Origin: Fibrobacteraceae bacterium
Lineage (GTDB): Bacteria; Fibrobacterota; Fibrobacteria; Fibrobacterales; Fibrobacteraceae
Reading direction: 5' to 3'
NCBI GenBank assembly: GCA_017631885.1
Contig: JAGBSH010000023.1
Location: forward strand, 1 to 64,000
DNA: 64,000 bases
Shown here: positions 44,868 to 57,322 of the stretch, one piece after another
How positions within the stretch are numbered: the first letter of the stretch is position 1
How the letters are laid out: each line of letters starts with the position of its first letter
Translations under genes and position numbers: made by a program
Notes under the pieces: model-generated
Told to the model about the DNA's origin: nothing
Databases searched by the model: none
What the model saw: only the letters and a program-made list of their open reading frames with translations

Positions 44868-46202
44868 TTATTTCTTTTTGCATTTACCAAGTATTGAAAG
44901 GTAAAGAGTTCCTATGATAGCGGCACTAATGCTTCCTAAGAGAATGCCAAGTTTTGCCGAATCTTGGCGTAAACCTGGTTCAAATGCAAGGCTTGACACA
45001 AATAGAGCCATTGTAAAACCAATGCCTGCAAGCATACCGCCACCAAGAAGAGTTCCCCAGGAATACCCAGAAGGTCTTTTTGAAATGCCGATTTTTACAG
45101 CAAGGAAAGAGAAAATGAAAATGCCAATAGGTTTTCCTACAATTAAAGCTATAGCGACTGCAATTAAAACAGGAACTTCAATACCGCCGCCAAGCTTGAT
45201 TTCAACACCGGCATTAGCAAGAGCAAAAACAGGCATAATCAAATAATTTACCCAAGGGTTCAATGTTTTATAAAGGCGTTCTTGCAAAGGTAAACTTTCA
45301 CGAGCGCCACGTTTTAGGGTATTGAAAATTTCAAATTTTTGGTGGCTGTCAATGGCTGGGCCGCCTTGCAAGAAATTGCCAATTCGTGCTGTATAATTAG
45401 CAAGAGTTTCACTGCCAACAATAGATTTTGCCGGGATAGAAAGGCCAAGAAGAACGCCTGCAATTGTTGGGTGAACGCCACTTTTTACAAATGCAGCCCA
45501 AACAACAATACCTAAAACCAGGTGAATCATAAAAGAACGAACGCCTAAACGGAAAAGTGCATTGATTAAAACAAGACAAGCAAATGCAACGCCAAGAGCT
45601 GTAAAAGCAACTCCATCGCCAGAAGGGTAGCCAATAGCAATCACAAGAATAGCACCAATGTCATCGGCAATAGCAAGAGTCAAAATCATAACGCGTAAAG
45701 CATGCGGTACTTTTTTGCCAAGAAGCGCCATACACCCAACAACAAAAGCAATATCGGTAGCGGTAGGAATTCCCCAACCTCGAGTTGCATCTGGAGGGCA
45801 AAGAGCTAAGAATATGAGCGCCGGAGCAAGCATACCGCCAGCGGCTGCAATAATAGGCAAACTTGCCGCTTTAGGGTCTTTTAGCTCTCCATAAGTGATT
45901 TCACCTTTCACTTCTAAGCCAACCACAAAGAAGAAAAGGGTCATTAAAGCATCGTTAATAATCCAATGCAAGTCAGCAGAACCAGTCCAAGACCCTATAG
46001 TCAATGAAACCGCTTGATGGAAAAAATGCTTGTAGGATTCTGGAGAAAGATTTGCCCACAATAAAGCGGCTATAGTCATTACAATAAGAACTATACCACC
46101 AGTCATTTCCATTCGAAGCAAACGTTCAATTGGCGTAGTAATTTTCTGGATTGGAGAATCCGGGAGAAGTTTTTCTAAGCGGTCGCTGCTAGTGACTTTC
46201 AT
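44868..46202 (-). CDS. nhaA: Na+/H+ antiporter NhaA
   Basis: 444-aa inner-membrane antiporter that expels Na+ in exchange for H+. It has about 12 TM segments; the paired ion-binding aspartates are in LAIADDIGAILVIAI (near 184-185). Other family motifs: FFFVVGLEVKGEI, GWGIPTATDIAFVVG and GFTMALFVS. It is about 55 aa longer than E. coli NhaA (388 aa), with an extended N-terminus and an inserted loop near 275-310. AAGGA precedes the ATG. Confidence 0.94.
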   Translation of the reverse strand: MKVTSSDRLEKLLPDSPIQKITTPIERLLRMEMTGGIVLIVMTIAALLWANLSPESYKHFFHQAVSLTIGSWTGSADLHWIINDALMTLFFFVVGLEVKGEITYGELKDPKAASLPIIAAAGGMLAPALIFLALCPPDATRGWGIPTATDIAFVVGCMALLGKKVPHALRVMILTLAIADDIGAILVIAIGYPSGDGVAFTALGVAFACLVLINALFRLGVRSFMIHLVLGIVVWAAFVKSGVHPTIAGVLLGLSIPAKSIVGSETLANYTARIGNFLQGGPAIDSHQKFEIFNTLKRGARESLPLQERLYKTLNPWVNYLIMPVFALANAGVEIKLGGGIEVPVLIAVAIALIVGKPIGIFIFSFLAVKIGISKRPSGYSWGTLLGGGMLAGIGFTMALFVSSLAFEPGLRQDSAKLGILLGSISAAIIGTLYLSILGKCKKK

Positions 46203-46258
46203 AGGGTTCCTTTTTATTGAAAAGTGAATCCAATTTTATTGAGGTTAAACAGAAAAAA

Positions 46259-47428
46259 TTAATAGAAATTAGGAGGCGGCCAACGAGGGTTCTTAGAGCT
46301 CATATCAACTTTGTAGAAGTCTTTTTGGAAACGTCCATCATTTAAACCATACATTTCCATAATATGACGAGCAAGCCATTTTCCAAGTTTCATCACGGTT
46401 AGTTTACGACGAAGACGGCCCTGGCAATCGCGGTTCATAATATCTGGAAGAGTTGATGTTGTGAGAATTTCATCAATAGCAGGGCTATTTAATTTTTCAC
46501 GAGCTTCTGGACTTGTGTGGAAGTGCGTTACCCCAAAGCAAACACGGTTAGGGTTACCCTTTTTAATATGTTCACAACATTGAACGATTGTAGTGCCTGT
46601 GCGAACCATATCATCAAAAACTATTACGTCTTTCCCTTCAATTTCTTCAATACTTATATCAGATAATTCCGGGTTAAAAGTCATGCTGATTTCACGTTCG
46701 CCAGTACGGACTTTATCCATAACCACGCGTTTGCATTCAGATAATTGCAAAGAATCAAAGACGGCGTTCATAAATGGCCTTGCTCCTTTATCCGGAGCGA
46801 CTATTACTAAGTTGTCGCCATCTTTACCCGTTTGTACAAAATTGGATGTTTTAATATAATGAGCGTAAACTTCAGTTGGAATCAAGTTGTGAAAATTTCC
46901 TTCAAAAATTTCAGCAAAGAGATTCTGTACCTTGATACTATGGTTGTGAACAGTTACTACTGCATCTACACCAGATTTTTTTAGAAGTTCAGCGTAAAGA
47001 AGAGAAGTAAAAGCCTGACCATCAAATTTCTTTAAATCAACATCTGGTCTATCTTTTTCGAGTTCACCTATACGGTGAGGACCGCGGTCTTGAGCACTAT
47101 AGAAAAGGTCTGGTTCTACAAGAACCACTTGTTCAGCCCCGTTATCTTTTGCTGCACGAGCAAGAATGCAATTACGCATAGCATAATCATTACGGCTGCG
47201 TTCATGGTTTGAAACAGAGCAAATTAAAACAATTTTTCCTTCTAAACGATTCCCGATATTTTCCATATCGTCAGCATCAAGCATATAACGAGGGCAAAAT
47301 TCAGAATTTGCAAAGGTTTTTAGAGAAACCATATCGGAAATATCTTCACGGAGTCCGATATATTGCGCCATATCAATGGCGAACGGATCGTCGGTGAAAT
47401 TGCCGGTCACGATAAAACGATCAGACAT
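46259..47428 (-). CDS. prs: ribose-phosphate pyrophosphokinase, long form
   Basis: 389-aa PRPP synthetase-type protein making phosphoribosyl pyrophosphate for nucleotides, His and Trp. Seen: the N-terminal half with VSLKTFANSEFCPRYML and LICSVSNHERSRND, the pyrimidine-type region VVTVHNHSIKVQNLFAEIF, and the PRPP-binding motif VIVFDDMVRTGTT (near 280). The protein is some 70 residues longer than usual forms (about 315) and its motifs are divergent, as in the alternative form 2 of this family. ATG at 47428 behind AAGGA. Single gene transcript, separated from lysA by a terminator. Confidence 0.82.
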   Translation of the reverse strand: MSDRFIVTGNFTDDPFAIDMAQYIGLREDISDMVSLKTFANSEFCPRYMLDADDMENIGNRLEGKIVLICSVSNHERSRNDYAMRNCILARAAKDNGAEQVVLVEPDLFYSAQDRGPHRIGELEKDRPDVDLKKFDGQAFTSLLYAELLKKSGVDAVVTVHNHSIKVQNLFAEIFEGNFHNLIPTEVYAHYIKTSNFVQTGKDGDNLVIVAPDKGARPFMNAVFDSLQLSECKRVVMDKVRTGEREISMTFNPELSDISIEEIEGKDVIVFDDMVRTGTTIVQCCEHIKKGNPNRVCFGVTHFHTSPEAREKLNSPAIDEILTTSTLPDIMNRDCQGRLRRKLTVMKLGKWLARHIMEMYGLNDGRFQKDFYKVDMSSKNPRWPPPNFY

Positions 47429-47536
47429 AAAGGTCCTTTTTTTGAAAGGGAGAATTTGAATGTTCCAAATATAAAAATTTATTATTGGCTTTTTTTTCTC
47501 ATTTATAAAAAGGCGATAAATTGCAGGGTAAATGCG

Positions 47537-47574
47537 AAAAAAAGATTTCTCCGATAGCGCAGCTATCGGAGAAA
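47537..47574 (-). terminator. lysA terminator
   Basis: 13-bp perfect stem (47546-47558 with 47562-47574) and 3-nt loop. On the minus strand it is followed by a run of T residues (47537-47543). It lies 35 bp after lysA. Confidence 0.9.
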
Positions 47575-47608
47575 AGGTTAAAACATTATGAATAAAGAGA
47601 ATTTAGAG

Positions 47609-48868
47609 TTAAAAATCAATCACTTTATCGTTTTGAAGCATCTGTTCAAAAGATTGCCTTTCTCTTATAAGTTTGAGTTCACCTTTTGAATACATAGCTT
47701 CTGCAGCATAACGACGGCTATTATAATTACTGCTCATAGAAGCACCATAAGCGCCGGCATCGTGAAGAATTAGCAAATCACCGACTTGTGCTTTGGGCAA
47801 ATTACGGGTGACAACAAAACCGCCTTCTTCTTGAGTGAAAACATCGCCTGATTCACAAAGAGGACCTGCCACAATGACATTTTCGGATTCATTTAATTCG
47901 CGGTCGTCGCAAGCGATAATAGAAATCCCATGATAACTACCATAGAAACTCGGGCGAACCAAATCGGTAAAGCCTGCATTCACTAAGTAGAATGTATTAT
48001 CGGCTTGCTTTTTAATGGCTCTAATTTCTGATACGAGATAACCGCTTTCTGCTACAAGATAACGCCCTGGCTCAACTTCTAAAGAAACAGAATGTCCAAT
48101 GCTTTGTTCAATACGTTTTCTCGCTTTATCCCAAAGTTCAAAATAAAGTTGCATATCAATCCGGTTCCCTTTTTCTTCTTCTTTATAAGAAATAGGGAGA
48201 CCTCCGCCGGCAGAAATAGTTTTAAGATGGCTGCCAAGAGCGCGGGCGGCATCGCACATAGAATCGCAAACTTTGGCTAAGTGTTCAAAGTCTGAACCAG
48301 AACCAATGTGCATGTGTAAGCCAGAAATCCACATTCCATGTTTTTGAGCTAACTTAACACATTCTTTAATTTGTTCATGCCAAACGCCATGCTTTGATAA
48401 ATCTCCACCAGTATTTACCTTGCTTGAGTGACCATGTCCAAAACCAGGATTCACGCGAAGAGTAAGGTCTGTACGAATACCTGCCGCAGCCAGTTGTTCG
48501 ATCATATCTGGAGAGCCAATATTCACCGGAATTTTGTGTTGCTTTACAAGTTCTAAAGCGTCTGCGTCGAAAATGTCAGCAGTATAAACAATTTCCGGAG
48601 CTTTCCCTTTTTCTATTCCACCTTTGTAACCGGCTTTTAAAGCACGAACAATTTCGCCCGCCGAAACGGCATCTACTACAACGCCAAGGCGTTTCATTAA
48701 TGCCAAAACAGAAAGGTTTGAACAAGCTTTTTGTGCATAGCGCACCACATCAAAAACTTTTGTCTCTTTGACGCGTTCTTCTATAGTTTCGCGGTTATAT
48801 ATCCAAAGAGGCGTTCCATACTCTTTGGCGGCTTTTACAAAAATATCTTTAGGAATAGAATAATTCAT
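47609..48868 (-). CDS. lysA: diaminopimelate decarboxylase
   Basis: 419-aa PLP-dependent decarboxylase, the last step of lysine synthesis. Seen: YAQKACSNLSVL (PLP lysine, near 45), the glycine-rich phosphate loop SAGGGLPIS, LEVEPGRYLVAESG and the CESGD motif near the dimer-shared active site. Family usually has YAVKANSN around the Lys; here it is YAQKACSN. ATG start at 48868. lysC in the same window starts this pathway. Confidence 0.92.
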   Translation of the reverse strand: MNYSIPKDIFVKAAKEYGTPLWIYNRETIEERVKETKVFDVVRYAQKACSNLSVLALMKRLGVVVDAVSAGEIVRALKAGYKGGIEKGKAPEIVYTADIFDADALELVKQHKIPVNIGSPDMIEQLAAAGIRTDLTLRVNPGFGHGHSSKVNTGGDLSKHGVWHEQIKECVKLAQKHGMWISGLHMHIGSGSDFEHLAKVCDSMCDAARALGSHLKTISAGGGLPISYKEEEKGNRIDMQLYFELWDKARKRIEQSIGHSVSLEVEPGRYLVAESGYLVSEIRAIKKQADNTFYLVNAGFTDLVRPSFYGSYHGISIIACDDRELNESENVIVAGPLCESGDVFTQEEGGFVVTRNLPKAQVGDLLILHDAGAYGASMSSNYNSRRYAAEAMYSKGELKLIRERQSFEQMLQNDKVIDF

Positions 48869-48955
48869 AAAGAAAATTTAGTAAAATGTTTTGCGCCTTA
48901 TGAATTAAGCAGAGGTAAAGTGGAGAAAAATGCTCATTCTTCTTTTTACAAGAAC

Positions 48956-50035
48956 TCAATCTTTTCGTAAATACCGCACGGCACGTTCTTTGCCATACAA
49001 AACATTACTGGATTTATTGTTTTTAGAATTTGTTCCGTTTATTCTGTAGATTGCCTGGGAATAGGGTTTAATAATATTTTTGTTTTTAAAAATAAGCTGG
49101 GGTTCTTCCTCGTTATAATGAATTTTTGTATACGTAGTATCTATGCTATCTGCCATATAATTATTTGCTATGTGATAAGACAATTCATTTACATTAATAT
49201 TTTTACAAGTAAAAATACGTTCTGGAGAAAATCCATAGTGTTCTATGTAAACAAACTCTCCTTCTATACACTCAGAAGGGGTTATCATACTGTATTTATA
49301 ACATATTTTATTTAGTGTCTTTTTAATTTCATATTTAATGAACTTAAAATCATAATAACATGTCGCATAAGAAGTATCTTTTTTGTACACTAAAAAAAGA
49401 GAGTCATCAAATCGCATATTTAATAAAAAATTCCCCATAGAATCGTTGTAAAATGAATGTGAAATGTGAAAGTATTTTTCTTGTTTTAAGGAATCTGTAA
49501 ATTGTCTTGATTCTAAAAAATCGTTTCGAAAATCAAAAGCTTTAGTAGAATCAGGAATGTAGCCTATAGGAGCAATCCATAAAGAATCAGAGTAATTTTC
49601 TTTTTCTATTGTTAAAATACCAATGTGATGTAATTGAACATACGGAAGAGGTTTAGGGCGGGAATAATCTTCATTGATTTGGATTATGAGTGGAGGAATT
49701 ACAGGATTTGATTTATCTAAACCACCAATTTCTAAAGCATAATAACTTATAGTGTCAAACATATATTTATAAGAGGTACAATTATCTGCTGGGTCTAAAA
49801 AAACACCATTAGAATCATAATTTATAACATTCGCGATATGATAATAGGGGTCATTTATGCTAAAAAATTTTGAGGATTCATCTATAACATTTGGAACAAA
49901 AAATTGAACAGGCCAATAAAATCTATAATTACAATTAAATCTTAAACCCTTATTCACATCATCTAAATGCAAATATCTGGTTTGTGTATATCCTAGTAAA
50001 GAAAAGAAAACGATTATGAAAGCAAGCTTTTTCAT
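48956..50035 (-). CDS. secreted paralogue A, C-terminal tag family
   Basis: 359-aa secreted protein. The N-terminal signal peptide is MKKLAFIIVFFSLLGYTQ; this Met (50035) was chosen because the two paralogues start there, although an in-frame ATG lies at 50047. The middle (about 150-225) shares a block with the paralogues: HIGILTIEKENYSDSLWIAP, SKAFDFRNDF-like segments and a DTSYATCYYDF stretch. The last 35 residues (YRINGTNSKNNKSSNVLYG, then ERAVRYLRKD) are nearly identical to those of the paralogues at DNA level (3-4 differences in 77 bp). Family not recognised. It is the last gene of the cluster. Confidence 0.72.
   Translation of the reverse strand: MKKLAFIIVFFSLLGYTQTRYLHLDDVNKGLRFNCNYRFYWPVQFFVPNVIDESSKFFSINDPYYHIANVINYDSNGVFLDPADNCTSYKYMFDTISYYALEIGGLDKSNPVIPPLIIQINEDYSRPKPLPYVQLHHIGILTIEKENYSDSLWIAPIGYIPDSTKAFDFRNDFLESRQFTDSLKQEKYFHISHSFYNDSMGNFLLNMRFDDSLFLVYKKDTSYATCYYDFKFIKYEIKKTLNKICYKYSMITPSECIEGEFVYIEHYGFSPERIFTCKNINVNELSYHIANNYMADSIDTTYTKIHYNEEEPQLIFKNKNIIKPYSQAIYRINGTNSKNNKSSNVLYGKERAVRYLRKD
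48965..49041 (-). repeat. C-terminal coding repeat, copy A
   Basis: 77-bp segment coding the C-terminal tag of paralogue A. By eye it differs from the copy at 54839-54915 at 3 positions and from the copy at 50065-50141 at 4. Confidence 0.85.
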
Positions 50036-50055
50036 ATTCAATTTCATCCAATTAT

Positions 50056-51147
50056 TTATTCTTTTCGTAAATACCGCACGGCACGTTCTTTGCCATACAA
50101 GATATTACTGGATTTATTTTTTTTAGAATTTGTGCCGTTTACTTTGTATATTGCTGGGTAGTAGGTTTTAACAGAGTTCTTATTTTTTAAGATAGGTTGA
50201 GGTGGATTGTTGTAATCAAAAGTCCAATATATAGTATCCAATTCAAAAGGTAATATGATTTGCTTTATAATTTTATAAGCCAATTCATTTTCATCAACTT
50301 GTTTACAAGTAAAATAACGTTTTGAAAGATATTCGTATTTATTTGTATGAAATTTTTTTTCTTTTAAGCAAGTATCCTTTTTATCGTTATATACTTCACA
50401 GATAACACCTTCAGAATATGAGTACTGAGTGAGAGTTTTGACAGATGCATATTCATAATCATAGTAACATACTGCATAAGAAGTATCCTTTTTATATACG
50501 AAAAAGAGCGAGTCGTCATTTTTTCGAAAGTTTAGAGACATGTTTCCCATAGAATCATTAAAAAAAGCATGTGAAATGTGAAAGTATTTTTCTTGTTTTA
50601 GGGAATCTGTAAATTGTCTTGATTCTAAAAAATCATTTCTAAAATCAAAAGCCTTGGTAGAATCAGGAATGTAACCCATAGGAGCAATCCATAATGAATC
50701 AGAATAATTTTCTTTTTCAATTGTCAAAATACCAATGTGATCTGATGATATATTTGATGATGTTGAATTTGATGATGTTGATGCAAGTACTCCTACACCC
50801 CCTTGAAGCATTTGCACAATTAATGGAGGAAAAACAGAATCCTTTAAATCATAAAATGCTAATGCATAATGTTCCCTTGGGTTTGATATGTACTTATAGT
50901 TTGAACACGTATCTCCATAATCAAATAAAACACCACTGGAATCAAAATTTATAATGCTAATCGCGCGAGTGTCGATATGGTAAAGAGGGTTGTATGAGTC
51001 AAAATATTCTGCAGGCCAAAATATATCGTAATAAATATCTAAACAGTATTCAAAAAACTCATACTTATCATCGTAAAAATGCAAATATCTAGTTTGTGCA
51101 TACCCTAGTAACGCAAAGAAGGCTATTATATAAGCAAGCTTTTTCAT
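50056..51147 (-). CDS. secreted paralogue B, C-terminal tag family
   Basis: 363-aa secreted protein with signal peptide MKKLAYIIAFFALLGYAQ and start ATG 51147 behind AGGAGGGG. It shares with paralogue A a central block (about 145-235: HIGILTIEKENYSDSLWIAP, DSTKAFDFRNDFLESRQF, EKYFHISHAF) and the C-terminal tag. The N-terminal 87 bp of coding and leader sequence are identical to those of paralogue C. Between these parts the paralogues differ greatly. It lies 9 bp after the protease gene, so the two are co-transcribed. Function unknown. Confidence 0.75.
   Translation of the reverse strand: MKKLAYIIAFFALLGYAQTRYLHFYDDKYEFFEYCLDIYYDIFWPAEYFDSYNPLYHIDTRAISIINFDSSGVLFDYGDTCSNYKYISNPREHYALAFYDLKDSVFPPLIVQMLQGGVGVLASTSSNSTSSNISSDHIGILTIEKENYSDSLWIAPMGYIPDSTKAFDFRNDFLESRQFTDSLKQEKYFHISHAFFNDSMGNMSLNFRKNDDSLFFVYKKDTSYAVCYYDYEYASVKTLTQYSYSEGVICEVYNDKKDTCLKEKKFHTNKYEYLSKRYFTCKQVDENELAYKIIKQIILPFELDTIYWTFDYNNPPQPILKNKNSVKTYYPAIYKVNGTNSKKNKSSNILYGKERAVRYLRKE
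50065..50141 (-). repeat. C-terminal coding repeat, copy B
   Basis: 77-bp segment coding the C-terminal tag of paralogue B. It differs from copy C (54839-54915) at a single position by eye. Confidence 0.85.
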
Positions 51148-51168
51148 ATCCCCTCCTTATTCTGTGGC
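51082..51168 (-). repeat. N-terminal/leader repeat, copy 1
   Basis: 87-bp block, identical by eye to 55823-55909. It contains the end of the protease gene, the ribosome site and the signal-peptide codons of paralogue B. Confidence 0.85.
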
Positions 51169-54100
51169 AGCCTTAAAAAGTATAGGCAAAATGGTGTACG
51201 GTAAACTTTCAATCTTTTTAATTCTATAACCAAAACCTTCAACTCCATCGTTATCACTATCTAAAACAATCTTTAATTTGTTTGTATGAAATGTTATGCG
51301 TTTACCTGCAAGTGATGAACCCGTGGATTTGCTTAGCAATTTATCTTTTGCATCATAAATATAAATTGTATCTCCAGAACCGAGAGTTGCCTCCTCGCCA
51401 AAAATAACGTAATTCTCAAGATTATCCCCTAAATCATATTCACATTGCAAAGTTGACATAGGTGGGTATGGGGAAACTACGCCACAAATTGAATCATTTA
51501 AAGGAACATCACTTGCTAAAGATACAACTTGGGCATTTTTATCTGAAATGCCATTCCCTTGGGTAATACTTGTTCCCATTACAACCACTTGCCATATTCC
51601 TGATTCAGGATTATCTACATCAACAACTTCCACATTATTTAAATGGTCAAAACATTCAGAATCTAATCTATAGGGTTTGTTGCAATCTCTTACGGCGTCT
51701 TGAATGTCACGTAATTTTATTTTTTCCGTACCCTTATAACGCCATCCAAAGGTTGTTTTTTCTAATTCATCTGTTGGTAATGGATTTAATTTCCATGGAT
51801 AATGGTATTTCCCTGAAGGTGAAATTAAATATATATCTAAATCATTGACCAATTTAGAATCCGTATAGAAAAGTTTTGGAGGTATTATTGAATCTATCTT
51901 TCCATAAGCATCGTCCCAAACCATGGTTACACGGAAGGCGTCTTTGCTTGGGGCAATATACAGATTCCAACGTTTTTCTACACCATTTGCAATTTCTGTT
52001 TCCAGGTAGCGATTTTCTTCTAAAACTTGAAGTGCTTTTTTTGCATTGACTTTACCCCAACCTGTAGCAAAATCAGGACCTTTTCCATAAGGTGTATAAT
52101 AATTATTCCCATCATTTTCTGAATGTGTAATATCAGGGTTAGGTCTCATATATTTTTTTATTTCTTCTGTAATGGATACTTCCATATCTTCTGCTGTGTG
52201 AATAAGCATAGCTTTGACTGTTGAATTTCGCAATGATTTCTTGTCCAAAGGAATTCCTGTTATTTCTCTGTATCGTTGATAGATTAAAGCGGCAATGCCT
52301 GAAACAAATGGGGCAGACATAGAAGTTCCACCATCTGGCATATCAAAATAACAACTTTCCATATTTTTTTCATTACATGGGTAGGGAGAATGAATAGGGA
52401 TTACTTTTTCATTAACTATTTCTAATTCTGCTCCGGGAGCCATTACATCAGGTTTAATACGACCATCCCAAGTTGGTCCCATACTAGATTTAGAAAAGCG
52501 AATTCCTGTTAAAGCAGAGTAATTCCCAACTGTAATTGCGTTTTTTGAATTAGAAAGAATGGAATGATAACCAATTTGGTAACCGTATTTTTCTCCTGGA
52601 CTAGCAAACCCATTATTGCCAGCTCCTACAACGACTGCTTTTGTTAACGTATCACCATCATCAGTAAAAGTTTTCCAATTGTAAAAAATATTTTTGTCGA
52701 CATTATAATTCGTTATTTCATACCAGCCACACTTATTAACGTCTATATGCGAATGATTAACCACATGGCCAATTTGTCCATTGTAACCATTTGCTCCAGA
52801 GTAAAAATGTACTTTTGGAGCGACTCCACGATATTTGTATTCTGGAGAAAAAGAGCCATTTCCTCCTAAAATGCCAGCAACTGTAGTCGCGTGCCAAAAG
52901 GATGAGTCATTATTTTCCTCAAAGGGTGAGAATTCTTTCATCTGTGCTAATACGTTATCCTTATTCTCTTCTTTAACAAATAACTCCTCTTTTCGAACTT
53001 TTCTAGGAACCATATTTCCATTTTCATCTATTTCATTAAAATCGGGGTGACTCCAATCAATTCCAGAATCATATACTCCTACAACAATTCCTTCTCCAGT
53101 GTAACCTGCATTAGATAGCCATTCTAGATCAGCATTTTTTTGTTTTAAATAATTTTTCCATTCGTCTGAATTTTGCAATTCGGTCACATGAATCGCTTCT
53201 CTACCAACGTCGTTTAAAGGAGCTCCTAAACGTACAACACCTACATACTCAATGTCATTATGTTCTAGCAAACAATCTTTTTGATTTTTGGACAATAACC
53301 CTAAAATCTCATGGTGGTCGATTTTAACATTTTTTACACCACAATTTTGCGCAATGCTTTTACATACTTCCATAGAAACATCAGCAAAACAAGAAATTGT
53401 TATAGAAAGTGAATCTAAATTTTCCTCTTCAGGCAAAAGTTCTAATGTTAATTTTGTAGTATCATCAACAGGGAAGGTGTTATAAAATCCATACATGTTT
53501 TCATTTAAAATTTTCTTCATTTGTTTAGAATGGACTTTTAATAGATACAAAGAAAATCCCTGATATTTACTTCCTTCTAAATCGTCTATCTCATTTTGTT
53601 TTAATAGTTTTCTTTCTTTGCTTGACAAAGGAGTTTCTTTTAACAACCAAAAACGGCCAGGATTTAAAATCTCTGTTGAATCTCCTGAATATGGATAAAT
53701 TACAGATTTTCCGCCTCTATCATACCACAAAACAACATCAGATTTTCTTTTGCCAGAAACGGGATCAACTCCCCACAGCAATTCTTTTGAAGCGTCATAA
53801 ACAGCTACCCAATAATGCGGTTCTGGTGTAGCTGATTTTTGTTGGTAAGAAAAATCTTTTGAGCAATCCCATGCACTCCAATTATTTTTATGTATTCTAA
53901 AATGAATATCTAGTGATTGGGAGGGTTGTAAAACACCCGTTAATTTTATTTGAAAAATATTATATGCTCCAGTAATAAATGATTCTACCTTTGTTGAATA
54001 AAAATAAGTGACGTAATCCACATCTAAAAGAAGGCTAGAATCTTCTGTATTTTCTGCAAAGTAATAAACTTCTGGATTGATAATTGATGTGGTTGATGTA

Positions 54101-54240
54101 TTGGTAAGTTTTAATCTGTATTCAACCCAATTCCATTCAGTGCGATGTCTTTCTGAAAGTAACTGAATTGTCAAGGGGACTTGTTCCTTGGCCAATAACT
54201 GTATTGCAAACAGCAGCAAAAGACAAAGGCCTCTCAACAT
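51157..54240 (-). CDS. subtilisin-like (S8) protease with N-terminal CBM3-like domain
   Basis: 1027-aa secreted serine protease. Signal peptide about 1-17 (MLRGLCLLLLFAIQLLA). Residues about 20-150 resemble a family 3 carbohydrate-binding module (TNTSTTSI, then TGVLQPSQSLDIHFRI and NWSAWDCSKDFSY, then LLWGVDP). The S8 domain (about 395-760) has the triad Asp in GVYDSGIDWSHPD, His in SFWHATTVAG (HAT for the usual HGT) and Ser in GGTSMSAPF. The C-terminal part (about 945-1010) is CUB-like (GSGDTIYIYDAKDKLLSKS). Start is ATG 54240 (a TTG at 54255 is in frame). It lies between a small secreted protein gene and paralogue B. Confidence 0.87.
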   Translation of the reverse strand: MLRGLCLLLLFAIQLLAKEQVPLTIQLLSERHRTEWNWVEYRLKLTNTSTTSIINPEVYYFAENTEDSSLLLDVDYVTYFYSTKVESFITGAYNIFQIKLTGVLQPSQSLDIHFRIHKNNWSAWDCSKDFSYQQKSATPEPHYWVAVYDASKELLWGVDPVSGKRKSDVVLWYDRGGKSVIYPYSGDSTEILNPGRFWLLKETPLSSKERKLLKQNEIDDLEGSKYQGFSLYLLKVHSKQMKKILNENMYGFYNTFPVDDTTKLTLELLPEEENLDSLSITISCFADVSMEVCKSIAQNCGVKNVKIDHHEILGLLSKNQKDCLLEHNDIEYVGVVRLGAPLNDVGREAIHVTELQNSDEWKNYLKQKNADLEWLSNAGYTGEGIVVGVYDSGIDWSHPDFNEIDENGNMVPRKVRKEELFVKEENKDNVLAQMKEFSPFEENNDSSFWHATTVAGILGGNGSFSPEYKYRGVAPKVHFYSGANGYNGQIGHVVNHSHIDVNKCGWYEITNYNVDKNIFYNWKTFTDDGDTLTKAVVVGAGNNGFASPGEKYGYQIGYHSILSNSKNAITVGNYSALTGIRFSKSSMGPTWDGRIKPDVMAPGAELEIVNEKVIPIHSPYPCNEKNMESCYFDMPDGGTSMSAPFVSGIAALIYQRYREITGIPLDKKSLRNSTVKAMLIHTAEDMEVSITEEIKKYMRPNPDITHSENDGNNYYTPYGKGPDFATGWGKVNAKKALQVLEENRYLETEIANGVEKRWNLYIAPSKDAFRVTMVWDDAYGKIDSIIPPKLFYTDSKLVNDLDIYLISPSGKYHYPWKLNPLPTDELEKTTFGWRYKGTEKIKLRDIQDAVRDCNKPYRLDSECFDHLNNVEVVDVDNPESGIWQVVVMGTSITQGNGISDKNAQVVSLASDVPLNDSICGVVSPYPPMSTLQCEYDLGDNLENYVIFGEEATLGSGDTIYIYDAKDKLLSKSTGSSLAGKRITFHTNKLKIVLDSDNDGVEGFGYRIKKIESLPYTILPILFKAATE

Positions 54241-54258
54241 TTGAAAACCTATCAATTG

Positions 54259-54681
54259 TTAAAATTCTTTTTGTTGAATAGCCACTAGAAATACAGCGTT
54301 AGAAACACCTGTAATTTTTTTATAAACAACATTCACAGGATAGCGGTGATTTGCTGCTGACATTGCTATTGAACCTGTCATAACCATGTTCAATGCATCA
54401 GCATTTTCATTTTCGTCAAGGTAATAGAATATGCGTAATGGAACAGAAGTTCCTGAAATATTGGTCGTTTCGTATTCTAAGCAATTAGCTGTTTTACCGA
54501 TATGAAAATTGAGTATTCTTTTGGCAGGCGTAGATTCTTTTGAGTTCATATCATAGGCAAGGCCACAAACATAACCTGTTGCATGACAAGTACCTGTAGG
54601 AAAATTTGAATCATTGCAAATTTCTGCTGTAAAGGCGTTTGTTGCAAAAAGTATGCAAAAAAGCATAAAGAACTTTTTCAT
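54259..54681 (-). CDS. small secreted protein, first gene of the protease operon
   Basis: 140-aa protein with a signal peptide (about 1-19, MKKFFMLFCILFATNAFTA) and AAGGAG in front of its ATG. The mature part has four cysteines (near 22, 32, 39 and 67) which could form disulfides, and beta-type sequence (VPLRIFYYLDENENADA, YPVNVVYKKI). It ends 18 bp before the protease start, so it is the first gene of an operon with the protease and paralogues B and A. A chaperone, inhibitor or substrate role is guesswork. No family recognised. Confidence 0.65.
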   Translation of the reverse strand: MKKFFMLFCILFATNAFTAEICNDSNFPTGTCHATGYVCGLAYDMNSKESTPAKRILNFHIGKTANCLEYETTNISGTSVPLRIFYYLDENENADALNMVMTGSIAMSAANHRYPVNVVYKKITGVSNAVFLVAIQQKEF

Positions 54682-54829
54682 TTTAAACTCCTTGCCTTAA
54701 AAGTGTGTAAGAAAAATATATTTTTTTGAGTTGGTGTCAAGAAATTTTTGTTACTCTAAAAAGAGCAATGCGATTGATAGAGTCCAGGGTGATATCGTGA
54801 TTTTGCTTTCTAAGATAACATAAAATCAT

Positions 54830-55888
54830 TCAATCTTCTCGTAAATACCGCACGGCACGTTCTTTGCCATACAAGATATTACTGGATTTATTGTTTTTAG
54901 AATTTGTGCCGTTTACTCTGTATATTGCTGGGGAGTAGGTTTTTCTAGTGTGATTTTGATGAATAAATCCAGTTAGAATTTTATAACTACTATCAATATA
55001 TGATGGGGGAGGAGTGGGTTTTATAATGGAATAAATAATTTCATCCTCATTAACCTGATTGCAAATAATATATGGATTATGCCTGTAATTGTAATATCTT
55101 TCGACTAAAAATGTTTTTTCAATACATTGAGAACCATCATCAGTATATCGTGTGCATTTTACATCACTAGATTCAGAAAGTAAATCCTTGGCTTTTAATA
55201 CATCTTCAATTGGATAATAATTAAAGTCATAACGACAAACCGCAAAAGAAGTATCCCTTTTATAAATAAAAAATAAAGAATCATCCGAGCGCAAATTTAC
55301 AGAAAAATTTCCTATTGAATCATTATAAAATTTACCTGGTGAGTCAAACCAGTAATAAGACATATCATCAAAATACTTTTCTCTCTCAAGAACAGAAAAA
55401 AAGTCCCGAGACTCTAAAAAATCATTTCTAAAATCTAAAGCTTTACTAGAATCAGAAATATACCCTATTGGAGCAACCCATAATGAATCAGAGTAATTTT
55501 CTTTTTCTATTACAAGAAAACCAAATGCAAAATGACCACAAGACGATCCCCACGATCCCCAAAGAGGACATCCTTCATTTTCTTGTGCATGTAAAATTAA
55601 TGGCGATATGGGCATAGAATCTGGTAAAACTGTAGAATCTAATATCATTGCATTTGGAATAGAATCATGAAAGTAATCATAATCAATGTCTTCAAGAATG
55701 ACCTCTGCAGAGTCAAAAACAAGAAGTCTCGTAGAAATTACACTCCACTGACCAAAATATAAAAACCAATCAGAACCATCTATCTCGCTTTGCGTTCCAT
55801 CCTCATGTTCAGAATTTAAATACAAATATCTAGTTTGTGCATACCCTAGTAACGCAAAGAAGGCTATTATATAAGCAAGCTTTTTCAT
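54830..55888 (-). CDS. secreted paralogue C, C-terminal tag family
   Basis: 352-aa secreted protein with the same signal peptide as paralogue B (MKKLAYIIAFFALLGYAQ), ribosome site AGGAGGGG and start ATG 55888. The central block (about 130-220) is present but less alike (LVIEKENYSDSLWVAPIGYI, SKALDFRNDFLESRDF). The C-terminal tag (YRVNGTNSKNNKSSNILYG, then ERAVRYLRED) is nearly identical. It is separate from the protease operon by 148 bp; it has its own leader that begins with a scar of the protease gene end. Confidence 0.73.
   Translation of the reverse strand: MKKLAYIIAFFALLGYAQTRYLYLNSEHEDGTQSEIDGSDWFLYFGQWSVISTRLLVFDSAEVILEDIDYDYFHDSIPNAMILDSTVLPDSMPISPLILHAQENEGCPLWGSWGSSCGHFAFGFLVIEKENYSDSLWVAPIGYISDSSKALDFRNDFLESRDFFSVLEREKYFDDMSYYWFDSPGKFYNDSIGNFSVNLRSDDSLFFIYKRDTSFAVCRYDFNYYPIEDVLKAKDLLSESSDVKCTRYTDDGSQCIEKTFLVERYYNYRHNPYIICNQVNEDEIIYSIIKPTPPPSYIDSSYKILTGFIHQNHTRKTYSPAIYRVNGTNSKNNKSSNILYGKERAVRYLRED
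54839..54915 (-). repeat. C-terminal coding repeat, copy C
   Basis: 77-bp segment coding the C-terminal tag of paralogue C; one difference from copy B, three from copy A. Confidence 0.85.
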
Positions 55889-55909
55889 ATCCCCTCCTTA
55901 TTCTGTGGC
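55823..55909 (-). repeat. N-terminal/leader repeat, copy 2
   Basis: 87-bp block identical by eye to 51082-51168, covering the signal-peptide codons of paralogue C, its ribosome site and the former end of a protease gene. Confidence 0.85.
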
Positions 55910-55927
55910 TGCCTTATGGGGAAACTA
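55898..55927 (-). pseudogene. remnant of a second protease gene 3' end
   Basis: On the minus strand the bases just before paralogue C read Lys-Ala-Ala-Thr-Glu-stop (55915-55898), the same end as the S8 protease. The next 13 bases (55915-55927) match 51467-51479 inside the protease gene, 292 bp away from its end. This suggests that a protease copy was once here and most of it was deleted. Confidence 0.6.
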
Positions 55928-56001
55928 ATATGTACCCAAAATATATCTTTTTTCTATTTGGAGTCAGGAAATTTTTCTGAATAGAAAAATTTCAAAAAAC
56001 A

Positions 56002-56026
56002 TACCGCCGAGCATAGCTCGGCGGTA
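56002..56026 (-). terminator. terminator of the CBM48-like gene
   Basis: 11-bp perfect GC-rich stem (56002-56012 with 56016-56026), 3-nt loop, followed on the minus strand by a T-rich run. It lies 121 bp after the gene. Confidence 0.85.
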
Positions 56027-56147
56027 GATTCTTATGACAAAAATTTAAAAGCTAAACTAGCAGAATGTTAACAAGTGGGTTTTAAAAAACGCTTGTGCAA
56101 GTTTGCGTAGATTCAACGCCAGTCTTAAGCCAAATACAACAACAAAA

Positions 56148-56525
56148 TTAAACGTGTTTAATCTTGTTATCGCCTTCGTCCCAGTTTTTGCCATCGCATA
56201 CAAACTTGTATTCGTAATCGCCAGGAAGAAGAGAAAGTTTTGCCTTCCAAAGGCCGGTTTTCTTTTCTTTCTTGAGCATGTCTGCATCAACTGCCCAATT
56301 GTTGAAAGCACCTGCAACAGAAACTGTAGTAGCAAGCGGACAATCAGCAACAAATTCAACAGAAACCTTTTTTGGGGCTACTTTCTTAGCAGCAGGTTTT
56401 GCGGCTTTTGCTTCGCAAGTTTTTTTAGTAGCGCAAGTTTTTTTTGCCGGAGCCTTAGTGGCGCAAGCTTTCTTGGCAGTAGCTTTTGGTGCTTTTTCTG
56501 CAGCAGTTTTCTTTGTGGTTGCCAT
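56148..56525 (-). CDS. CBM48-like domain with histone H1-like tail
   Basis: 125-aa protein in two parts. Residues 1-53 are Lys/Ala/Thr-rich with repeated Cys (KKACATKAPAKKTCATKKT, AAKPAAKK), like bacterial histone H1-like tails. Residues 54-125 are a CBM48/AMPK glycogen-binding-type beta fold (VSVAGAFNNWAVDADML, GLWKAKLSLLPGDYEYKF, CDGKNW). No signal peptide. GGAG lies 9 bp before ATG. A role linking carbohydrate (glycogen) to nucleic acid or other partners is possible but only inferred. The combination is unusual. Confidence 0.78.
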   Translation of the reverse strand: MATTKKTAAEKAPKATAKKACATKAPAKKTCATKKTCEAKAAKPAAKKVAPKKVSVEFVADCPLATTVSVAGAFNNWAVDADMLKKEKKTGLWKAKLSLLPGDYEYKFVCDGKNWDEGDNKIKHV

Positions 56526-56668
56526 ATTTCATTTCTCCTATTTTAAGTTAGCACAATATTAAAAAAAATTTACGAATTTGACTAGGTTCTTTTTCGCTTT
56601 ATCAAAAATAAGGGGAAATGGCGCTTAAGAGTCTTTTAGAAAAGAGCAATATTTTTATATTTGGCAGT

Positions 56669-57322
56669 ATGAGTTTACAGCAAATTATCGCTCCAAGTGT
56701 GTTAAATGCCGATTTTCTTGAATTAGGCAAAGGTTTAAAAGCTATTGAAAATGGTGGTGCAGGTCTTGTTCATTTAGATATTATGGATGGCCATTTTGTT
56801 CCAAATGTAAGTTTTGGCCCTGGTGTTTCTAAATGTATCGGCAAAGGAACCTCTCTTCCGCTTGATTGCCATTTAATGATTTCAAACCCAGAACAATATG
56901 TAGAAGAATTTGCAAAAGCAGGCGCAACTTATATTTCTGTTCATGCTGAAACTACAAACCATTTAGACCGTTTATTACACCAAATTCGTGAACTTGGTTG
57001 CAAACCAGCAGTAGCATTAAACCCGGCAACTCCATTGGAAAGTGTTCTACATGTATTAGACATTGTAGATATGGTGCTTATTATGTCGGTAAATCCAGGG
57101 TTTGGTGGTCAAAAATTGATTCCTTATACTCTAGAAAAAATCAAAAGGCTACGAGCACTTTGCCCCGAAAAAGATATTCAAATTGATGGCGGCGTAAACC
57201 TGGAAACAATAGCTTTAGCTAAAGAAGCAGGGGCTAATATTTTTGTTGTGGGGAGTGCTATTTTTGGAACTCCCGATCCAGAAACTACTTGCAAAAAATT
57301 TGTTGAAGCTGTACTAAAGTAA
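56669..57322 (+). CDS. rpe: ribulose-phosphate 3-epimerase
   Basis: 217-aa TIM-barrel epimerase of the pentose phosphate pathway, converting ribulose 5-phosphate and xylulose 5-phosphate. Seen: IAPSVLNADF (near 6), HLDIMDGHFVPN (metal His and Asp), DCHLMI, VNPGFGGQ and the C-terminal IQIDGGVN and FVVGSAIFG. Start chosen as ATG 56669 because it gives the usual N-terminus; an in-frame ATG at 56618 would add 17 residues that do not fit the family. Terminator and tRNA-Val gene follow closely. Confidence 0.93.
   Translation: MSLQQIIAPSVLNADFLELGKGLKAIENGGAGLVHLDIMDGHFVPNVSFGPGVSKCIGKGTSLPLDCHLMISNPEQYVEEFAKAGATYISVHAETTNHLDRLLHQIRELGCKPAVALNPATPLESVLHVLDIVDMVLIMSVNPGFGGQKLIPYTLEKIKRLRALCPEKDIQIDGGVNLETIALAKEAGANIFVVGSAIFGTPDPETTCKKFVEAVLK

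What the first reader, a model, noticed from the sequence alone, without database searches (positions are those of the whole stretch)
48956..55888. Candidate undescribed system: protease, small secreted protein and three tagged paralogues
Five minus-strand genes in a row encode secreted proteins. Three are paralogues with the same signal peptide, a shared central block and a shared C-terminus, but with divergent sequence in between. The small secreted protein, the protease and paralogues B and A are spaced 18, 9 and about 20 bp apart, which fits one transcript. I do not recognise the paralogue family. A protease whose partners are variable secreted proteins could be a surface-processing or fibre-adhesion system.
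Basis: partly seen in the sequence, partly recalled or inferred. Interest (0 to 1): 0.62.

Follow-up and report, generated by a model that had tools for sequence, protein, structure and literature searches.

The report
Surface protease module with swappable partners
A family of fibre-digesting gut bacteria keeps a secreted protease with a cellulose-binding-type domain beside a small secreted OB-fold protein and a fast-changing surface partner, and the partner genes move about as cassettes carrying a scrap of the protease gene, which suggests an undescribed, diversifying protease complex on the cell surface.

Summary
In detail: five secreted-protein genes in a row (paralogue C, small protein S, an S8 protease, paralogues B and A). 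In 111 Fibrobacteraceae genomes, all 18 loci with a (near) full-length copy of this protease have S on the same strand. Directly behind the protease lies a relative of the paralogues (P family, 12 of 18), a FISUMP lipoprotein (5) or another lipoprotein (1). Protease: CBM3-type N-domain plus intact S8 triad. S: predicted OB-fold, nearest solved folds AB5-toxin B subunits and SSB/PriB. P: no known family or fold; it has either a signal peptide plus C-terminal tag, or a lipid anchor without tag. P genes away from an intact protease often (17 of 29) carry a protease-gene remnant upstream, like displaced Rhs cassettes. Gene conversion at the paralogue ends is visible between two sister genomes. Best reading: a surface protease complex, working like dentilisin, whose anchored partner is exchanged by recombination. 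The complex, cleavage of P and the target are inferred, not shown. S is confined to one family; no description was found in the papers held.

The parts
54830..55888 (-). paralogue C (P family): signal peptide, conserved central block, C-terminal tag
   Evidence: P profile E 1e-63
55889..55914 (-). upstream of C: about 26 bp that copy the end of the protease gene (last coding bases, stop, RBS), i.e. a short protease-gene remnant
   Evidence: (repeat family D3); too short for the remnant scan
55940..55967 (-). promoter-like site upstream of C, in a 51-nt stretch 76% identical to that upstream of S
   Evidence: (D11)
54713..54740 (-). promoter-like site TTGACA-16-TATTTT upstream of S
54259..54681 (-). 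S: small secreted protein, predicted OB-fold, present at every full-length protease locus
   Evidence: (pLDDT 81)
51157..54255 (-). S8 protease, 1032 aa: signal peptide, CBM3-type domain (res. ~34-165), pro-region (~173-347), subtilase domain (387-714; D396 H455 N547 S645 intact), C-terminal beta domains
50056..51147 (-). paralogue B (P family), 9 bp behind the protease: the partner slot
   Evidence: P profile E 7e-67
48956..50047 (-). paralogue A (P family), tandem copy behind B
   Evidence: P profile E 9e-63

Best explanation
The five genes are one instance of a Fibrobacteraceae module that builds an exported protease complex held at the cell surface. The protease (CBM3-type N-domain, pro-region, subtilase domain with intact triad, beta domains) is exported. 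S, a small secreted OB-fold protein, is its constant partner, probably a binding or assembly subunit. The gene directly behind the protease is a 'partner slot' for a variable, envelope-held protein: a P protein held through its C-terminal tag or a lipid anchor, or a FISUMP lipoprotein. By analogy with dentilisin I infer that the partner docks on, anchors and is trimmed by the protease, and that its variable face sets what the complex meets (fibre, rival cells, phage or host). The slot diversifies as a cassette: recombination through the protease 3' end, the P signal-peptide block and the tag shuffles, duplicates and displaces P genes. Shown: the module, its conservation, the tag/lipid alternation, the remnants and the conversion at gene ends. 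Inferred: location at the surface, the physical complex, P cleavage, the target.
For: S on the same strand at all 18 full-length protease loci; P directly behind the protease at 12, FISUMP lipoproteins at 5, another lipoprotein at 1. Partner class follows the protease tree (3 changes, least possible 2, shuffled mean 6.3, 0 of 200 as low). All seven P genes with a lipobox lack the tag; complete P genes with an ordinary signal peptide bear it; the tag is found on no other protein in 12 genomes. CBM3-type N-domain; catalytic D/H/N/S intact in the window. S is predicted as an OB-fold whose nearest solved folds are AB5 B subunits and SSB/PriB. Remnants of the protease gene lie upstream of 17 of 29 P genes that have no intact protease in front, against 3 of 300 random windows. 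In genome G072 copies of the protease end (dS 0.11) and of S (dS 0.24) are much closer than the P between them (dS 1.16). B carries C-type ends here but A-type ends in sister G110 with a 97% identical body. Dentilisin is a surface subtilase complex with two lipoproteins, one cleaved by it (PMC8167434).
Against: No interaction, cleavage or localisation is shown. P has no usable structure (pLDDT 40) and no family match. Some P genes and a distant P-like family stand alone. Three FISUMP-type proteases have the catalytic Asp replaced by Glu, so proteolysis may not always matter. P orthologues of the two sister species are under purifying, not positive, selection (dN/dS 0.15-0.19). Remnants could also come from simple deletion of most of the protease.
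Confidence: 0.5

Rival explanations
1. Protection model: the protease (with S) is deployed against other cells, and P is an envelope-held inhibitor or immunity protein; solitary and tandem P genes are orphan immunity genes, as in polymorphic toxin systems.
For: P is fast-evolving, tandemly duplicated and kept as solitary genes with protease remnants, which resembles displaced Rhs cassettes (PMC3967940); lipid or tag retention would suit envelope protection.
Against: P lies in a slot that can hold FISUMP lipoproteins instead; no toxin or delivery domain found; no inhibitor family or fold detected for P; the protease's own pro-region is a more obvious inhibitor.
Confidence: 0.17
2. AB-type exported protease: S is an AB5-like B subunit (glycan-binding oligomer) that carries the protease to a target cell, as SubB does for SubA; P is accessory.
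For: Subtilase gene adjacent to a small secreted OB-fold protein; nearest solved folds of S include pertussis toxin S5 (E 1.2e-4), PltB, ArtB and the B subunit of SubAB.
Against: OB is a common fold and SSB/PriB score almost as well; no sequence similarity; oligomer state not testable; the protease is about three times the size of SubA (own knowledge) and has a CBM3-type domain.
Confidence: 0.1
3. Nutritional enzyme: a fibre-attached protease that digests plant or feed protein; P and S are ordinary secreted accessories and the recombination is neutral gene-family turnover.
For: CBM3-type domain in a family of gut bacteria (sister genome: water-deer cecum MAG); remnants may be plain decay, since some S and P copies are broken.
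Against: Does not explain the constant S, the tag/lipid alternation, or why P differs so much more than its flanks.
Confidence: 0.18

Closest known systems
Dentilisin (PrtP-PrcA-PrcB) of Treponema denticola
   Same: Operon of a surface subtilase and lineage-specific partner proteins; partners are lipoproteins, one cleaved by the protease (PMC8167434). Weak PrtP model match (E 2.8e-6; far below cut-off, subtilase domain only).
   Different: PrtP itself is acylated; here the protease has a plain signal peptide, a CBM3-type domain and an OB-fold partner; P matches nothing known and behaves as a cassette.
Rhs/CDI-type polymorphic systems with orphan cassettes
   Same: Displaced cassettes carrying a fragment of the upstream conserved gene (PMC3967940).
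   Different: The variable part here is a separate gene, not a C-terminal domain; no toxin or immunity domain found; solitary P genes mostly keep their own start and signal peptide.
Subtilase cytotoxin SubAB (AB5)
   Same: S8 protease gene beside a small secreted protein of OB-fold.
   Different: No sequence similarity of S to B subunits; much larger multidomain protease; pentamer untested.
KP-43/SubHal-type secreted subtilases
   Same: Best solved relatives of the catalytic domain (1wmd E 1.6e-26, 5fax).
   Different: No CBM3-type N-domain in the solved chains (434 residues) and no S or P partners known to me.
FISUMP proteins (TIGR02145)
   Same: Fill the same slot behind the protease as lipoproteins.
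   Different: P gives no TIGR02145 match.

Membership tests
Peptidase family S8 | subtilase domain above Pfam cut-off | tested here: met
   124 bits against cut-off 21.8, E 9e-36
Peptidase family S8 | catalytic Asp, His, Ser and oxyanion Asn | tested here: met
   D396, H455, S645, N547 aligned over 17 proteases
CBM3 | sequence-profile similarity to solved CBM3 domains | tested here: met
   1g43 E 1.4e-8, other scaffoldin CBM3s E 1e-6 to 1e-5; Pfam itself gave no hit
CBM3 | cellulose binding | not testable with these tools
   binding assay needed
AB5 toxin B subunit | OB-fold with central helix | tested here: inconclusive
   pertussis S5 E 1.2e-4, TM 0.50/0.68; SSB and PriB also score
AB5 toxin B subunit | sequence similarity to known B subunits | tested here: not met
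   no relevant PDB sequence match, no Pfam match
AB5 toxin B subunit | pentamer, glycan binding | not testable with these tools
   no multimer prediction available
Dentilisin complex | acylated subtilase PrtP | tested here: not met
   protease N-terminus MLRGLCLLLLFAIQLLAKEQ has no convincing lipobox (by eye); PrtP model far below cut-off
Dentilisin complex | operon partners that are lipoproteins | tested here: inconclusive
   true for FISUMP and lipid-type P in relatives; in the window P has a tag instead
Type IX secretion cargo | C-terminal domain TIGR04183 | tested here: not met
   no NCBIfam hit on P; tag profile finds only P
Polymorphic toxin systems | orphan cassettes with a fragment of the conserved gene | tested here: met
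   17 of 29 solitary P genes
Polymorphic toxin systems | recognisable toxin and immunity domains | tested here: not met
   no Pfam, NCBIfam or PADLOC match on P or S

The most novel reading that the evidence does not exclude
A polymorphic protease system: a fixed exported protease and OB-fold subunit plus a partner slot whose occupant is exchanged, displaced and stored as orphan cassettes through homology in the 3' end of the protease gene, giving each strain its own surface-held partner for recognition of, or protection against, kin, phage or other microbes.
Probability: 0.25. Interest if true: 0.82.

Novelty: new variant of a known kind. Interest (0 to 1): 0.58.

Why it matters
If true it would be a multi-gene surface protease complex of Fibrobacteraceae, key fibre digesters of herbivores, for which I found no earlier description, and it would extend the orphan-cassette mode of evolution, known from Rhs and CDI toxins, to a slot next to a protease. 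It also joins three uncharacterised things (the P family, the S family and FISUMP lipoproteins) in one testable framework.

Tried and rejected
P structure: AlphaFold model too poor to search. P as a known family: only sub-threshold hits (MACPF_D3 E 0.009, below cut-off). P tag as a generic type IX sorting signal: rejected, found only on P, and P is not matched by TIGR04183. Anti-phage defence: PADLOC hits the protease only through its subtilase domain. CUB-like character of the last ~100 residues of the protease is my reading only; Pfam did not support it. Positive selection on P: not seen.
Full report
OBSERVATION. The five genes are present as described. On the minus strand, in order of transcription: paralogue C (55888-54830), small protein S (54681-54259), protease (54255-51157, probable ATG at 54240), paralogue B (51147-50056), paralogue A (50047-48956). 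The three paralogues share signal peptide, a central block and the C-terminus, with divergent sequence between (57% and 47% identity to B). The own genome (2.37 Mb, 98.8% complete) has no further copies. A promoter-like site lies upstream of both C and S, in similar sequence, so C is probably its own transcript and S-protease-B-A another; this rests on consensus matches only.

COMPARATIVE SEARCH. With the window's three paralogues as query, only the sister genome G110 is found (G110 is a Fibrobacteraceae MAG from water-deer cecum). The third genome of the genus, G109, lacks both paralogues and protease. The protease, however, has relatives in 21 of 111 family genomes (in G018 and G063, and perhaps others, the match is only to its pro-region). 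I fetched the neighbourhoods. At each of 18 loci with a full-length or nearly full-length protease, S lies on the same strand. Directly behind the protease, or behind S, stands a P protein at 12 loci, a FISUMP lipoprotein at 5 (TIGR02145 confirmed for four; the fifth, L046, read by eye at the end of the fetched stretch) and at one a lipoprotein with the protease's own pro-region (L047). Gene order is S-protease-P in the window, its sister and G098, and protease-P-S elsewhere; these three also group in the protease tree, with modest support (82/92).

P FAMILY. Aligned across genera, P proteins are only about 15-20% identical to the window's but share DS(L/I)W, an FxVYKKDxxYxAxC...CxxQDDGSxNF region and the C-terminal tag YkVNGTxxxxxSSNIVIxNKQPKLQLKG, of which the window's VNGTNSKNNKSSNILYGKERAVRYLRKD is the local form. 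Profile searches find P in 36 of 111 family genomes. The tag profile hits only P genes in 12 genomes, so it is not a general sorting signal, and P is not matched by the type IX tail model, although Fibrobacter is thought to use type IX secretion for its cellulases (PMC6851124). Seven P genes (L037, L040, L116, two in L123, L124, L132) encode a lipobox and all seven lack the tag; the complete P genes with an ordinary signal peptide have it or the distant form of it. I read this as two ways to the same end: keeping P in the envelope.

S FAMILY. S is found in 23 of 111 family genomes and nowhere else in the phylum (168 genomes). Conserved cysteines suggest disulfides. The AlphaFold model (18-row alignment, pLDDT 81, pTM 0.73) is an OB-fold with a long helix before the last two strands. 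Foldseek against the PDB gives pertussis toxin S5 first (E 1.2e-4, TM 0.50/0.68), then single-strand DNA-binding OB proteins, PriB, PltB, the B subunit of SubAB, ArtB and LT-II B. Sequence profiles give nothing relevant. For a secreted protein the B-subunit class is the more apt parallel, but OB-folds are common and this is a lead only.

PROTEASE. S8 domain E 9e-36, nearest solved relatives KP-43 and SubHal. Catalytic residues D396, H455, S645 and N547 are intact in the window; three FISUMP-type relatives have Glu for the Asp. Outside Fibrobacteraceae the listed relatives align over the catalytic and following domain, with no match to the N-domain.

CO-OCCURRENCE. Over 111 genomes P and protease co-occur with Fisher p about 4e-9 and S and protease with p about 2e-13 (genomes are related, so the p-values overstate independence). 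Partner class follows the protease phylogeny with 3 changes where 2 is the minimum (shuffled mean 6.3, 0 of 200 as low).

CASSETTE BEHAVIOUR. Many P genes lie away from an intact protease. Of those that neither follow an intact protease nor stand in tandem behind another P, 17 of 29 have a piece of the protease gene in the 600 bp upstream, nearly all from its 3' part; random windows of the same loci give 3 of 300. One search prints 19 of 31; I removed L037 and L040, whose P overlaps the end of an intact protease. One of the 29, L139, starts at a contig edge. Several of these cassettes also keep S in the order fragment-P-S (L113, L116, L117, L119, L120, L124). In L041 and L044 the fragment-plus-P lies downstream of the main locus, as displaced Rhs orphans do (PMC3967940). 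The window's C carries about 26 bp of the protease end ahead of its start. In genome G072, copies of the protease end (dS 0.11) and of S (dS 0.24) are far closer than the P genes between them (dS 1.16), which fits replacement of P between conserved flanks; faster turnover of P could contribute. Between window and sister genome, the signal-peptide block and tag of B are C-type in one and A-type in the other while the body is 97% identical: direct evidence of gene conversion at the ends. Decarboxylase gene, paralogues, S and the protease's N-terminal part are 96-99% identical to the sister genome (the rest of the protease 89-96%), while the genes beside the block are 80-89% and homology ends at 44.9 and 57.3 kb, so parts of the locus have probably been exchanged between the two species recently.

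MECHANISM. Shown: a conserved module with a constant protease-S pair, a partner slot, an anchoring alternative for P, and cassette-like exchange. Inferred: that protease, S and partner form a complex at the surface, that the partner is trimmed and anchors or directs the protease, and that variation is driven by recognition. The closest working parallel is dentilisin, a surface subtilase complex with two lipoproteins, one of which the protease cleaves (PMC8167434). This is not a member: the protease here has no lipobox and the partners are unrelated by any search. The protection model, the AB-type model and the purely nutritional model are kept as rivals. No paper in the library was found that describes this module (subscription journals are largely missing).

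VERDICT. Observation confirmed; interpretation partly supported and extended. A new variant of a known kind: a surface subtilase with operon partners, but with cassette exchange of the partner.

Noticed in passing
L250:6676-7890 (genome G063); similar hits in G018, G089, G085, G040: Lipoprotein carrying the protease's pro-region (residues ~173-347) on its own, twice in L250. Could be a stand-alone protease inhibitor; L047:12255-13040 has one beside a protease and S.
   Followed up: partly
L042, L045, L046 proteases (A8): Catalytic Asp replaced by Glu in three proteases paired with FISUMP lipoproteins; possibly weakened or pseudo-proteases.
   Followed up: partly
window 44868-57304 against L032/L147: Homology to the neighbouring region of sister genome G110 is confined to this block; decarboxylase, paralogues and S are 96-99% identical while the flanking nhaA- and prs-like genes are 80-89%: probable exchange between species.
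   Followed up: partly
L126, L133-L135, L137, L138, L146, L148: Distant P-like secreted proteins with a related tag (YLVNGQSARKNSASGIRVEKERVYR) in genomes that mostly lack protease and S.
   Followed up: no
L036:4475-5532 and L044:12437-13503: Two S genes in tandem with divergent sequence behind one protease and P.
   Followed up: no
G070 (L037, L043), G041 (L034, L038, L047), G098 (L041, L048): Single genomes hold two or three complete modules with different partner classes, so the classes are not mutually exclusive alternatives.
   Followed up: partly
L032:5688-6101: A 137-aa minus-strand ORF sits between the decarboxylase gene and paralogue A in G110 but not in the window (about 460 bp insertion).
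   Followed up: no
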